Source: Spinellus fusiger (taxonomy: Eukaryota > Mucoromycota > Mucoromycetes > Mucorales > Phycomycetaceae). From it: a stretch of DNA of 64,000 bases. Numbering within the stretch: position 1 is the stretch's first letter; each line of letters starts with the position of its first letter. The notes under the pieces were generated by a model. The model made no database searches. It had not been told where the DNA came from and was given only the letters and a program-made list of their open reading frames with translations. Of the stretch, positions 42,814 through 46,816 are shown piece by piece. The DNA is taken from positions 143,719-207,718 of the forward strand of contig JALLLS010000064.1 in assembly GCA_025094145.1 (NCBI GenBank). The letters are read 5' to 3'. Made by a program: the position numbers and the translations under genes.

Positions 42814-43150
42814 TATCACGCTCACTAAACAATCAATAAATTATCTCTCATTTTTTTTTGTCTTTGCCTTTTTTAAAATAATAATAATCTTTGCTTGTTT
42901 TTTTTTTATTTTTTTTTGGGTTTGAAGTCAAAGGAATTTACACACCAAGAAATCTTTAGGATATAAAAGGAAATAGTCAAACTACAATTGTTTAAAAATG
43001 ACAAGTCGATTTGAAAAGAAGCAAAAATAAATCAAGATGTATTCATGTTAGTTTTTAAACAAATAAAGATTATGTAGATTTACCTGTAAATATCTGAATC
43101 CCATAGGAAACCACCTTTGATGTGGTGATATATAGTATGAATACAAATAT
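42814..43150. other. Intergenic A/T-rich stretch, downstream of the Fanzor-type relic
   Basis: Lies between two convergent 3' ends. It contains T-rich runs (42846-42920) and a short ATCCCATAGG..CCACCTTTGATGTGGTGATAT hairpin-capable stretch at 43098-43130. In TnpB/Fanzor systems the guide RNA is read from the 3' end of the gene, so this is where such an RNA would be, but nothing beyond position supports it. Confidence 0.3.
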
Positions 43151-43742
43151 TTATTCTTTTCTACAGAATGGAGCTGGTCGGTGGCGACCCTTTAATCCCT
43201 CTTCTGAAATTGTATAGATATTCTTTGATGCATTCACATCTCTGTTCCAAACAATTCCACAACTTTGGCAAGCGTGGATATTGTTGAAATTTATGAATAC
43301 CTCTATGAGGCTATTTGTGTTATAAGTGTGGCAGATCTTGAGAATAAAAATAAAACAGAGGAACTGTTAGAAGAGCTTTTCATAGAGTGAGAGGTCAATC
43401 ATGTTTACCCTCGATGTAAGGAACTCATCAACATCAACCATAAGAAGATCTCCACCTTTTTGTCTCTTCTTCAGTGATTGATATAAAACTCTCATCAAAC
43501 CAACACGATGACCTTTAAACTTGGCAGCATCTTTTACCTTTATTCCTGTGCCATAAGTAACGACTGGCAGCTTGGCAGGATCGTACTCTAATCCTTTTAG
43601 GTGCCAATACCTCTTTTTAATAATAAAATGATAGTAAAAACAATGAGTTCGAGATATATTAATGTACTCTCTATGTGTGTGTCGTATTACCCTTGCACTG
43701 ACACCTTCTTCTTGCCTTTGCCTTTGTAACGGATTCGCTGGG
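43151..43742 (-). pseudogene. Fanzor (TnpB-like RNA-guided nuclease) C-terminal exons
   Basis: Three reverse-strand exons with agreeing phases (43742-43691, 43610-43409, 43336-43151; 440 nt, about 146 codons to the stop at 43151). They encode YWHLKGLEYDPAKLPVVTYG, then AAKFKGHRVGLMRVLYQSLK, then LLMVDVDEFLTSR, then ACQSCGIVWNRDVNASKNIY and KGRHRPAPF. This is the end of the RuvC-like nuclease of Fanzor/TnpB: the DE(Y/F).TSK block, the zinc ribbon and the terminal RDVNAA.N motif with its catalytic Asp. The zinc ribbon has CHTY where a CxxC pair is expected, so one ligand is lost. Upstream, the exon that should join meets stop codons and no RuvC-I or N-terminal part was found. Family members are guided to DNA by an RNA from their own 3' region. 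I call it a truncated relic; an undetected intron-rich N-terminus cannot be ruled out. Confidence 0.72.
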
Positions 43743-45543
43743 CTTATTATAGTAAAAGAATATAAAATAGAAACTGACTAACATGTCAGACATAATAAAC
43801 ATACACAAACACTCACCAAATCACAAATGTTGGTTTATATGCCAGGCAAAGACAAACAAGTTAAAGAGGGTAGAAGTTATGAAGAACAAAAGACAGTGTA
43901 ATTAGCAGGTATTTATATCCGAACAGAAGATAACAAATCGAATTTTCACAACTCATTTGCTTAATCAGAACTACCAAAGTAATGCAGACTACAACAACAT
44001 TTAAAAAAGAAAAAGAATTGCTTAAAGAACAGTTGCCTAGTTACCCATTGTGCTCAAATTGTGTGTTGTGTCCCTGTTCATATACCCTCTTTGATTTCCC
44101 TGGACCAGTCTTTGTATCCAATACTCCATTTCTTTGTCCCTTCTAGAGACCAAACAACTACAGATTCATCTCTTTAGTGGTCCTGTTGATAACCACAGCG
44201 CCCTTTATTACAGAATAAAGGATATATTTTAAAAAGTTACATAGTATAGATCTTGAGGCTACTTTTATATATTTTTAAGCTATAAGGATCAAAACTATAC
44301 GATAATAACATCTCTGTAAATTCATAAATGAACTCCCTCCTCTTGTCCTATGTATGTTTCAAGGGAAGAGAGAAACCTTTTCTTCTTCTTTTACAATAAA
44401 ATCACTTTCTGGAATTCTATGGACTTGAAATACATGATCAAGAGTATACACACTATAGGACAGGACAGTTACCCTTCCCAGTCTTCTTGAATGTTCTATA
44501 AAAGCCATAGCTATTGCTTGAGAACAGCAAATTAGACAAATTCATAGTAAAAAAAAAGAAATATATGAACAATAAAGTCACTATTTCTTTGGTTGGTCAA
44601 TGTATTTGAAAAGAACATTTTCACTGTCTGTCTGTTTTAGCATTGACTATGGACTGTGTAATTAAACACTATAAAGTTGGATAAAAGGAAGAAGTAAACT
44701 TGACATTGCAACTCAATCACTGTATTTATTGTTTAACATGTGCTATCCATAAGCCCGCAGTATTTGCAGCATAACACTGCTTGGGAAATATTTATTATAG
44801 GACATACTGAATTAACTCTAGTGGTCATTGTCCATAAAATAGAACCAAACTTACTTGTGTTGAGAACAGTATAGTCATTCATTGACTCAATATTTATAAT
44901 CACTTAAGTAAGTATGTTATTGTAACTGGTATTAACAATAATACTTAATGATAACTAAGTATTGTTTCTAATACTGTCCTTTAGGTCCAAGGCAAATAGA
45001 GTGTGAATTGTTTGACTTGTAAATTTTATGAGTGGAGACTAGTATATACACCATCAGAATAGAGAGAGAAAGGTTATTATTTGTTTTGATATTCCCCTCT
45101 TGTTATTTTCCACATTGCGCATACAACTTAACGCTCAATTACTTGTCAAGATGGGCATAACTAAATAAGGTAATGTGCTATTATTAACAAAGAGAAACAA
45201 TAGATGGAAGTGATAGACACTACTAAGGACTATTCTAGTGATAAAAAGGTAAGAAGTGTCTTCATCTGGAATTGAGCTCAATGTATTCCACAAGACACTC
45301 ATTGTATTATTATTAGGCAAGTAAAGACTCACAAATCAGTCTCAGTTGGTCTTCTACAAGGTCAATAATGTCTAGATTATACTCCTAAGCATAGTTATCT
45401 ATCTCCTAAGGATAAAACACAGGGACTTTAGGGTATAGATTCTATTTCTATGAAGGAGTGTGCTTAGGCAGTAGCTATAGTCATAATATAGTATTATCTA
45501 TACTATTACAATAAACAATTTTATTCATAAACACTATTTTATT
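43743..45543. other. AT-rich region upstream of the Fanzor-type exons
   Basis: No confident coding sequence. Decayed 5' exons of the Fanzor-type gene may lie within the first few hundred bases (a GTGAGTG..AG intron frame is seen at about 43743-43815), but stops interrupt each frame. Confidence 0.4.
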
Positions 45544-45625
45544 GATAATATAATTTGATATTGAGTTATCCTACAAAAGGAAATGATAATATAATTTGAT
45601 ATTGAGTTATCCTACAAAAAGAAAT
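45544..45625. repeat. 41-bp direct tandem repeat, two copies
   Basis: 45544-45584 and 45585-45625 differ at one base (AAAAGGAAAT against AAAAAGAAAT). The unit begins GATAATATAATTTGATATTG. A partial third unit may follow. Confidence 0.9.
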
Positions 45626-45830
45626 AATAATATAAATACTTGCAAACCTTTTGATTTTAAACACAGTTCCATAAAAGGGCATTCTTATTACTTAACAGGT
45701 AATACTGTGCACCTTTAAAGACCCGAAAATTCTCCTGGTGTGTAGACATTATAATATTTAGTAATCACAAAATTCAATAAACACTTTATTATTCTTTAGA
45801 TAGCTTACCTGTAGCATGGGTTTTCTTCAG

Positions 45831-45918
45831 TTAGTTAACCGAGGCTCCAGAAATCACTGGGGAGAAGAAGGATGGGGATGAGTAAGAAGGTTTAGACCTT
45901 TTCTTGGATCTAGCTTAT
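45831..45918 (-). pseudogene. Orphan 3' exon, paralogue of 49775-49876
   Basis: Reverse frame ends KKRSKPSYSSPSFFSPVISG ASVN followed by TAA. The end of another small frame at 49775-49876 has the similar SFFSPSITQAFG, and about 110 bp around the two are alike at the DNA level. The family D element at 45920 cuts it off just upstream, so this copy is broken. Confidence 0.35.
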
Positions 45919-45919
45919 A

Positions 45920-46728
45920 CAGTCATACAAAATTAGAAAGGGTACGACCCCATAATTTATACAATTTTAAACATGAATCTTCTTCTTTTTACCACAGAAT
46001 CACATTCATCAGATATATTCATCAGATTGGGTTTGATTCCTACTTTGCAACACACAAGCCAAGGTCCTCTGAAGAAAACATGAAGAAAAAGACTCCGTTG
46101 GGCGAAGGAACGGGTCAATTGGACCTCTGAGGACTGGAGACACGTTGCATGGTCTGATGAGTCACAGTTTGAAGTATAAGGTTACCTAGGGAGGGACCAG
46201 AATGATTCAAAAGATTGGAGAAAGAGGATAGGGACTTTATATTCCAAGAAGATGGGGCTATCTGTCATACAGGTGGCTATACAACATGGTGGAAAGGCAC
46301 ACATCAAATTAGGATACTTTGATTACTAGTCCACTCAAAGCCCTGATCTCAACCTCATTGAACATCTCTGGAGCTGTCTTGATAAGCTTATTGATAACAA
46401 GAGAGCCAGTATTAATAATACCGATGAGATCAAGACAGCTTTAGAAGAAGCTTGGAGAAATATCCACGTTGATCTTGCCGAACGTTTAGTTGGCTCAATG
46501 AAGGATCGCTGCCAGGCAGTTATTGATGCCAAAGGTGGCCCAACACCATATTAAATAAAAACTTTTTATTTTATGTATAATAGTATAGACTATATGCTAA
46601 GCTAGCTTTTTGTTGAATTTGGTGTTGCTAATATATATTTTGAGGTCTTAGCCTTTTCATGCATAACTAATGCTCTTTCTCAAGACTTAAAAAAAGGAAA
46701 ATCGTATACTTACTTATTTTGTATGCTG
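45920..46728 (+). mobile_element. Internally deleted Tc1-type family D element
   Basis: 809 bp with TA on both sides (45918-45919, 46729-46730) and the family D ends CAGTCATACAAAATTAGAAAGG and, in reverse, CAGCATACAAAATAAG. The N-terminal coding part and a central block (around WGKDSIITWSCFW) are missing. The HL/IEHLWSCLDKLI and RLVGSMKDRCQAVIDAKGG parts are kept in broken frames. Confidence 0.85.
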
Positions 46729-46816
46729 TATAACAAGACTTAGTTACGGGTTTTGGTGGTGGGTTTAGACAATACATTCAATGCCTCAAGGTCATGATTG
46801 GGAGTTGTTGGGTAGA

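What the first reader, a model, noticed from the sequence alone, without database searches (positions are those of the whole stretch)
43151..43742. Fanzor/TnpB-type nuclease remnant with intron-split C-terminal exons
Seen: three phase-consistent reverse-strand exons encode the DE.TSR block, a zinc ribbon and the terminal RDVNASKN motif. Established: this set of motifs is the C-terminal RuvC/zinc-ribbon end of TnpB and eukaryotic Fanzor proteins, which are RNA-guided DNA nucleases. Seen: one zinc-ribbon Cys is replaced (CHTY for CxxC), the catalytic Asp of the RDVNA motif is kept, and stops block any upstream join I tried. Inference: a truncated Fanzor element in a fungal genome, perhaps with its guide-RNA end in 42814-43150.
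Basis: partly seen in the sequence, partly recalled or inferred. Interest (0 to 1): 0.8.

Follow-up and report, generated by a model that had tools for sequence, protein, structure and literature searches.

The report
High-copy transposon carrying Fanzor remnant
The spot holds the tail end of a Fanzor, a eukaryotic relative of CRISPR nucleases, carried inside one old copy of a short jumping element whose ends are repeated hundreds of times in this probably fungal genome.

Summary
Three minus-strand stretches (43737-43691, 43610-43409, 43336-43151) encode a Fanzor1 C-terminus: PF07282 E=3.9e-11; a profile built with relatives hits the solved Fanzor1s of Spizellomyces, Parasitella and Guillardia. 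It is not an isolated gene remnant. It lies at the right end of a 2.8-kb element, window 42939-45744, with inverted repeats (TACACACCAGGAGAT-type) and TA at both ends. With up to 3 mismatches the right end occurs 625 times and the left end 580 times in the 38-Mb genome; reversed-pattern control 0. The truncation belongs to the family: the majority sequence of 20 long copies shows no RuvC-I upstream, and copies as short as 289 bp keep both ends. The Cys-to-Tyr change is shared by 11 of 23 copies. New here: the left flank is strongly TCTA (TC in 48/99), the right flank is not (10/99; p=8e-9), which looks like the target motif (TAM) of a guide-carrying Fanzor element. Best reading: a non-autonomous "ghost" Fanzor element family, probably moved in trans by a TA-specific transposase. 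RNA guiding in trans is plausible but unproven: no significant RNA structure at the right end, and no full-length Fanzor found.

The parts
42939..45744 (-). whole repeat unit in this copy (2802 bp plus a TA at each end)
   Evidence: sharp edges against 20 re-fetched loci; ends read
42939..42940 (.). TA at the right (3') end, presumed target duplication
   Evidence: L026 insertion appears to keep an interrupted transposase frame if one TA is restored (by eye)
45743..45744 (.). TA at the left (5') end, presumed target duplication
42941..42954 (-). right terminal inverted repeat (CACACCAAGAAATC on the plus strand here; mostly CACACCAGGAGATC in the copies)
45729..45742 (-). left terminal inverted repeat (CACACCAGGAGAAT on the minus strand)
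45743..45746 (-). TCTA at the left flank: TAM-like motif enriched across copies
43691..43737 (-). putative exon 1 (RIRYKGKGKKKVSVQ); exon status uncertain
43409..43610 (-). exon 2: RuvC-II region with the alternative Glu (VDEFLTSR)
43337..43408 (-). intron 2 (GT...AG in 21 of 23 copies)
43151..43336 (-). exon 3: zinc ribbon (CHTY...CQSC), RuvC-III WNRDVNASKN, C-terminus and stop TAA
42939..43042 (-). [quoted passage not shown]
   Evidence: position by analogy with SpuFz1; the 289-bp copies keep about this 3' part; folding not significant
42919..42938 (-). predicted guide: flank just beyond the right end (inference only)
   Evidence: by analogy with SpuFz1; sequence

Best explanation
The feature is one old, decayed copy of a non-autonomous DNA transposon family with short inverted repeats and TA at its ends, present in several hundred copies, that carries the last exons of a Fanzor1 gene plus its 3' end. 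Shown: element limits, number of ends, Fanzor1 identity of the exons, lack of the N-terminal part in the majority sequence of 20 copies, internal-deletion derivatives, and a one-sided TCTA flank preference. Inferred: copies are moved by a TA-specific (Tc1/mariner-like) transposase in trans. Inferred and less certain (about 0.35): the retained right end is or was transcribed into an omega-RNA whose guide is the right flank; a full-length Fanzor1, elsewhere or now lost, used it to cut re-emptied donor sites next to TCTA, which favoured keeping and spreading copies at such sites.
For: Fanzor identity: PF07282, NCBIfam TnpB models below their cut-offs, Fanzor1 structures by profile (8gkh E=6.8e-10, 9cf0 4.5e-9, 9cer 1.5e-3), alternative Glu. 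Family: 150 PF07282 matches from 150 scored of 457 candidates, 147 over the cut-off; 625 and 580 ends, control 0; limits. Non-autonomous: majority sequence of 20 long copies; NF040570 gives 106 matches (106 scored of 239 candidates), each within profile positions 348-386 of 389. Ghost-like deletions down to 289 bp. TAM-like asymmetry: C before TA 75/99 left vs 42/99 right (p=3.7e-6), TC 48/99 vs 10/99 (p=7.6e-9); another TA-flanked family in the same genome has C in 12/89. Exon variants shared by three or more copies lean synonymous (33:47) against private ones (27:81), p=0.026.
Against: No full-length Fanzor was seen in this genome, though the searches are weak for intron-split genes. I ran no search for a transposase with these ends. 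The right end does not fold better than shuffles; in the window copy the best-folding stretches lay over exon 3 (z -2.5, 13 windows). Without relatives in the profile the PDB search found TnpB/Cas12-type proteins and no Fanzor1. The synonymous lean vanishes if variants shared by two copies (5:27) are added (38:74 vs 27:81, p=0.18), and exon 2 in frame (13:21) is no better than one off-frame reading (12:17). The flank asymmetry could come from a transposase that tells the two ends apart. No transcript data.
Confidence: 0.85

Rival explanations
1. A plain high-copy Tc1/mariner-like MITE family that picked up a dead Fanzor 3' end as passenger; the TCTA bias is the transposase's own preference for inserting the left end next to C, and no RNA guiding was ever involved in its spread. 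(Shares the element part of the best explanation; differs on the guiding.)
For: Copies evolve like neutral sequence: exons 2 and 3 (0.073, 0.079) are no less variable than the introns (0.054, 0.065); no RNA structure at the right end; the right flank also has extra C before TA (42/99 vs 12/89 in the other TA-flanked family, p=1e-5), so part of the bias is symmetric.
Against: The bias is far stronger on the left, where a Fanzor TAM must lie; the two inverted repeats share TACACACCAGGAGAT in the majority sequence; S. punctatus Fanzor elements have a conserved CA upstream of the left repeat that fits the measured TAM CATA.
Confidence: 0.5
2. A formerly complete Fanzor1 gene in this copy, degraded in place, with its upstream exons still hidden in 43740-45700.
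For: Total length (2.8-3.1 kb) would fit a full Fanzor1 gene; upstream stretches in the majority sequence have open frames of 67 and 100 aa, and the second has a far sub-threshold Cas9_RuvC hit (E=0.096, 13.1 bits against a cut-off of 27).
Against: The majority sequence of 20 copies shows no recognisable RuvC-I and no Pfam match above cut-off in those two frames; their shared variants do not consistently favour synonymous changes (6:34 and 19:31).
Confidence: 0.07
3. An exon of an ordinary cellular zinc-ribbon protein rather than a Fanzor.
For: Weak hits to other zinc fingers.
Against: Repeat family with about 600 ends; profile hits to three solved Fanzor1s; Fanzor-type alternative Glu.
Confidence: 0.02

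Closest known systems
Spizellomyces punctatus Spu-1 Fanzor elements and their ghost loci (SpuFz1; PMC10432273, section 7 and passages read)
   Same: Fanzor1 between inverted repeats; many 'ghost' copies with ends but no protein; a conserved dinucleotide upstream of the left repeat; RNA at the right end (shown there, only predicted here)
   Different: Here the ends number about 600 instead of 42 + 134 loci, the motif is TCTA instead of CATA, at least 150 places keep a C-terminal TNB exon, and no full-length gene was found
Fanzor1 in Mariner-type elements (PUl-4, PGv-1 and others; PMC3627910, passages read)
   Same: Inverted repeats, TA target sites, Fanzor without its own transposase in some
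   Different: Those in the passage encode a Fanzor1 protein; this family carries only its C-terminus; its repeat sequence was not compared with theirs
Fanzor1 of Mucorales (Parasitella PpFz1, 9cf0; MCi, PBl and ROr elements)
   Same: C-terminal domain aligns through TSR, WNRD and the terminal RP.F.R
   Different: PpFz1 TAM is ATN (PMC11423790 passages); MCi-4, PBl-3 and ROr-4 elements have 9-bp duplications (PMC3627910 section 12)

Membership tests
Fanzor1 protein | C-terminal TNB zinc ribbon and RuvC-III Asp (NRDxNA) | tested here: met
   PF07282 E=3.9e-11; one Cys is Tyr in this copy and CHTY is read in 11 of 23 copies
Fanzor1 protein | alternative Glu six residues before the zinc finger, canonical Glu absent | tested here: met
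   DVDE-FLTSRI-C in the window, aligned with DEYKTS of SpuFz1; YGTG, by eye, where 11 of the 12 viral-contig TnpBs read have a Glu; rule from PMC10711439 passages
Fanzor1 protein | sequence relation to proven Fanzor1s | tested here: met
   profile A2 (2 own sequences + 9 of the 18 proteins): 8gkh E=6.8e-10, 9cf0 E=4.5e-9, 9cer E=1.5e-3; LaTranC 9jfo/9jfq score alike (4.3e-9, 5.2e-9) but over 33 positions only; own sequences alone gave no Fanzor1
Fanzor1 protein (functional nuclease) | RuvC-I DPG motif and N-terminal REC/WED | tested here: not met
   not found in frames of the window copy or of the majority sequence of 20 copies, by eye
OMEGA / Fanzor ghost element | transposon ends kept, protein lost | tested here: met
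   289-bp to 3.1-kb copies with both ends
OMEGA / Fanzor ghost element | structured omega-RNA over the right end with a flank-derived guide | tested here: inconclusive
   no significant folding, no Rfam match; expression not testable here
OMEGA / Fanzor ghost element | TAM-like motif beside the left end | tested here: met
   TC before TA 48/99 left vs 10/99 right
Tc1/mariner (IS630) superfamily element | inverted repeats with TA duplication | tested here: inconclusive
   TA beside the repeat at the left end in 16 of 17 and at the right end in 16 of 17 copies readable at both ends (L024, L026, L036 of 20 not readable there); this alone cannot tell a duplication from part of the repeat; one insertion appears to keep frame with one TA (by eye); no uninterrupted paralogue found
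Tc1/mariner (IS630) superfamily element | cognate DDE transposase with these ends | not tested
   no search for one; the transposase remnant beside the window copy has other ends

The most novel reading that the evidence does not exclude
RNA-guided cutting by a Fanzor acting in trans shaped which sites hundreds of protein-less copies occupy: the one-sided TCTA is the fossil of a TAM, so the insertion map of a eukaryotic transposon records the specificity of a nuclease that the genome may no longer encode.
Probability: 0.35. Interest if true: 0.7.

Novelty: new member of a known kind. Interest (0 to 1): 0.42.

Why it matters
If right, it is a larger case of ghost Fanzor elements than that of S. 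punctatus, in a family not seen in my paper searches. Several hundred insertions give enough data to infer a TAM from insertion flanks alone, and so to ask whether Fanzors help transposons persist, which PMC10432273 leaves open in its discussion (passages).

Tried and rejected
Full-length Fanzor in the same genome: OrfB_IS605 PF01385 gave 0; NF040570 only C-terminal pieces; N-terminal pieces of R. pusillus P0003 and Lipomyces P0007 gave 0. All are weak for intron-split, divergent genes, and the tool itself says for that an empty answer shows nothing.

Protein databases: two X-padded searches for longer relatives (about 255-925 aa) scored 158 and 243 candidates and found nothing; the region I gave missed the last 20 residues of the peptide (checked), so that answer counts for little. 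An unpadded profile search found 18 at E<=10 of 1606 candidates, best named ones Rhizomucor pusillus. Viral contigs: 14 loci; in the 12 whose frames I read, RuvC-I is D[LTVI]G, not DPG, and 11 keep a canonical Glu (L056 reads G), so TnpBs, not Fanzors, by eye.

Guide-RNA structure: 3' tails of 7 copies scored z 0.1 to 1.8; 23-sequence consensus z=-0.5 against column shuffles. A stem ATACAT/GTGTGT closing about 105 nt keeps standard pairs in 137 of 138 cells, but each pair varies on one side at most, so it proves nothing.

Window transposase remnant (about 45918-46730) as partner: rejected, different ends. Its relatives also lie near Fanzor copies in L035 and L037, but those loci were picked by a query holding both.

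Empty site: no uninterrupted paralogue for L026. The piece of L026 that looks like an IS630 transposase has no Pfam match on its own; the likeness to the L042 transposase (DDE_3, E=1.3e-26) is by eye. In one search the 'exon C open' count (1 of 23) is an artefact, because extraction lost the last stop base in nearly every row; not used. Internal stops lie in exon 3 of 6 of 23 copies. L040 (two partial copies) was left out of the 20-copy alignment; L036 was kept there although its left end was misplaced, and L024 and L026 with left ends cut short.

Full report
WHAT IS THERE. A spliced translation of exons 2 and 3 matches PF07282 (Cas12f1-like TNB) at E=3.9e-11, the frame holding exon 3 at 5.7e-7. 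NCBIfam TnpB models match at the same end only and below their cut-offs. Searched alone, the exons find TnpB/Cas12-type structures (L79, Cas12m, LaTranC) and no Fanzor1. With relatives in the profile (A2: two own sequences plus 9 of the 18 proteins) the top hit is the Spizellomyces punctatus Fanzor 8gkh (E=6.8e-10), with Parasitella parasitica 9cf0 (4.5e-9) and Guillardia theta 9cer (1.5e-3) among 19 hits; LaTranC scores alike (4.3e-9, 5.2e-9) but over 33 positions only, the first two Fanzor1s over about 130. The Glu stands six residues before the zinc finger and the usual TnpB Glu position reads YGTG, the Fanzor arrangement described in PMC10711439 (passages; alignment). Closest proteins: a JGI protein without organism (47%) and two Rhizomucor pusillus proteins (42-44%); R. 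pusillus is a Mucoromycota fungus. No tool names the host; 'fungal' is an inference.

ELEMENT. DNA from the surroundings matches other places with sharp edges (40 scored of 2389 first-look candidates, 136 matching pieces; 20 re-fetched loci mapped). Reading those edges shows inverted repeats TACACACCAGGAGAT.../...ATCTCCTGGTGTGTA with TA at the outer ends. In the window the element is 42941-45742 with TA at 42939-42940 and 45743-45744. It lies between a RhoGAP and a kinesin gene piece.

COPY NUMBER. Right-end pattern with up to 3 mismatches: 320+305 places; left-end: 286+294; reversed controls 0. These are ends, not paired copies. TNB exon: 150 matches from 150 scored of 457 candidates.

THE FAMILY IS TRUNCATED, NOT JUST THIS COPY. 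The majority sequence of 20 copies (window + 19 loci chosen as most similar to it) has recognisable Fanzor coding only in the terminal exons; two upstream open frames have no Pfam match above cut-off, though one has a far sub-threshold Cas9_RuvC hit (E=0.096). A full-length TnpB profile gave 106 matches in this genome (106 scored of 239 candidates), each within positions 348-386 of 389. Shorter copies are internal deletions that keep both ends; the shortest of those fetched, 289 bp, keeps about the last 109 bp and about 187 bp of the left end. The Tyr in the zinc ribbon is shared: CHTY 11, CHTC 9, other 3 of 23 distinct copies.

DECAY AND PAST CODING. Across 23 copies exons 2 and 3 are no less variable than introns, third codon positions somewhat more variable (0.094 vs 0.071 and 0.065). 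Variants shared by three or more copies lean synonymous (33:47) compared with private ones (27:81), Fisher p=0.026; against neutral expectation p=0.005-0.05 depending on the rate assumed. This is fragile: variants shared by two are 5:27, and adding them gives p=0.18; in the 20-copy set exon 3 in frame is 13:18 against 4:22 and 6:18 off frame, but exon 2 is 13:21 against 12:17 and 6:26. Reading: the ancestor probably coded, the copies drift. Exon 1 is doubtful because its acceptor site is unique to the window copy.

THE ONE-SIDED FLANK. In 99 distinct left flanks (100 listed of 187 matches) C precedes TA in 75 and TC in 48. In 99 distinct right flanks (100 listed of 129), read from outside inward in the same way, C in 42 and TC in 10; p=3.7e-6 and 7.6e-9. 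Another TA-flanked family in the same genome has C in 12 of 89 distinct flanks (93 listed). So there is a modest symmetric C preference plus a strong left-only TC. SpuFz1 elements have a conserved CA upstream of the left repeat and the enzyme's TAM is CATA (PMC10432273, section 7 and passages). TCTA here is the counterpart by position. This is the most interesting result; a transposase that distinguishes its two ends remains the main alternative. Caveats: the sample needs exact inner matches and a non-T at the twelfth flank base, covers the contigs listed first, and left and right flanks are not paired by copy.

GUIDE RNA. By analogy the scaffold would be about 43042-42939 and the guide 42938-42919 on the minus strand. 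The right end does not fold better than shuffles; of 13 windows scanned the strongest folding was over exon 3 (z about -2.5, uncorrected); Rfam has nothing. So this is inference only.

TA DUPLICATION. One copy (L026) sits in what looks, by eye, like an IS630-type transposase frame that continues if a single TA is restored (compare the L042 transposase; the L026 piece alone has no Pfam match). No uninterrupted paralogue was found. TA duplication is likely, not proven.

LITERATURE. Fanzor1 in TA-flanked Mariner elements (PMC3627910, passages and section 12) and ghost Fanzor loci (PMC10432273, section 7 and passages) are known. A search for Fanzor with Mucoromycota found 0 papers; Fanzor with ghost and RNA found one. 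This family, its scale and the TCTA bias did not show up in the listings; supplementary files were not open to me, and most subscription papers are not held.

VERDICT. A new, large family of a known kind; ordinary in identity, moderately interesting for the flank asymmetry.

Noticed in passing
window 45918-46730: A separate, decayed Tc1-like element with its own inverted repeats (arms 45924-45947 and 46702-46725) and a sub-threshold DDE_3 remnant directly beside the Fanzor element; flanks of its family favour TATA (A before TA in 61 of 89).
   Followed up: partly
L042:278-1597: An open 440-codon frame with a DDE_3 transposase domain next to another Fanzor-family copy.
   Followed up: partly
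P0003: A Rhizomucor pusillus predicted protein joins a DPG motif (SIDPG) almost directly to the Fanzor zinc-ribbon end, possibly a mis-predicted or deleted Fanzor1.
   Followed up: partly
L059 and L060: Pairs of identical or near-identical short copies in opposite orientation (289 bp twice; 762 and 760 bp), suggesting inverted duplications.
   Followed up: no
window 43905-43925: A TATAAATA box-like stretch upstream of putative exon 1, also in the majority sequence; could be a promoter inside the element.
   Followed up: no
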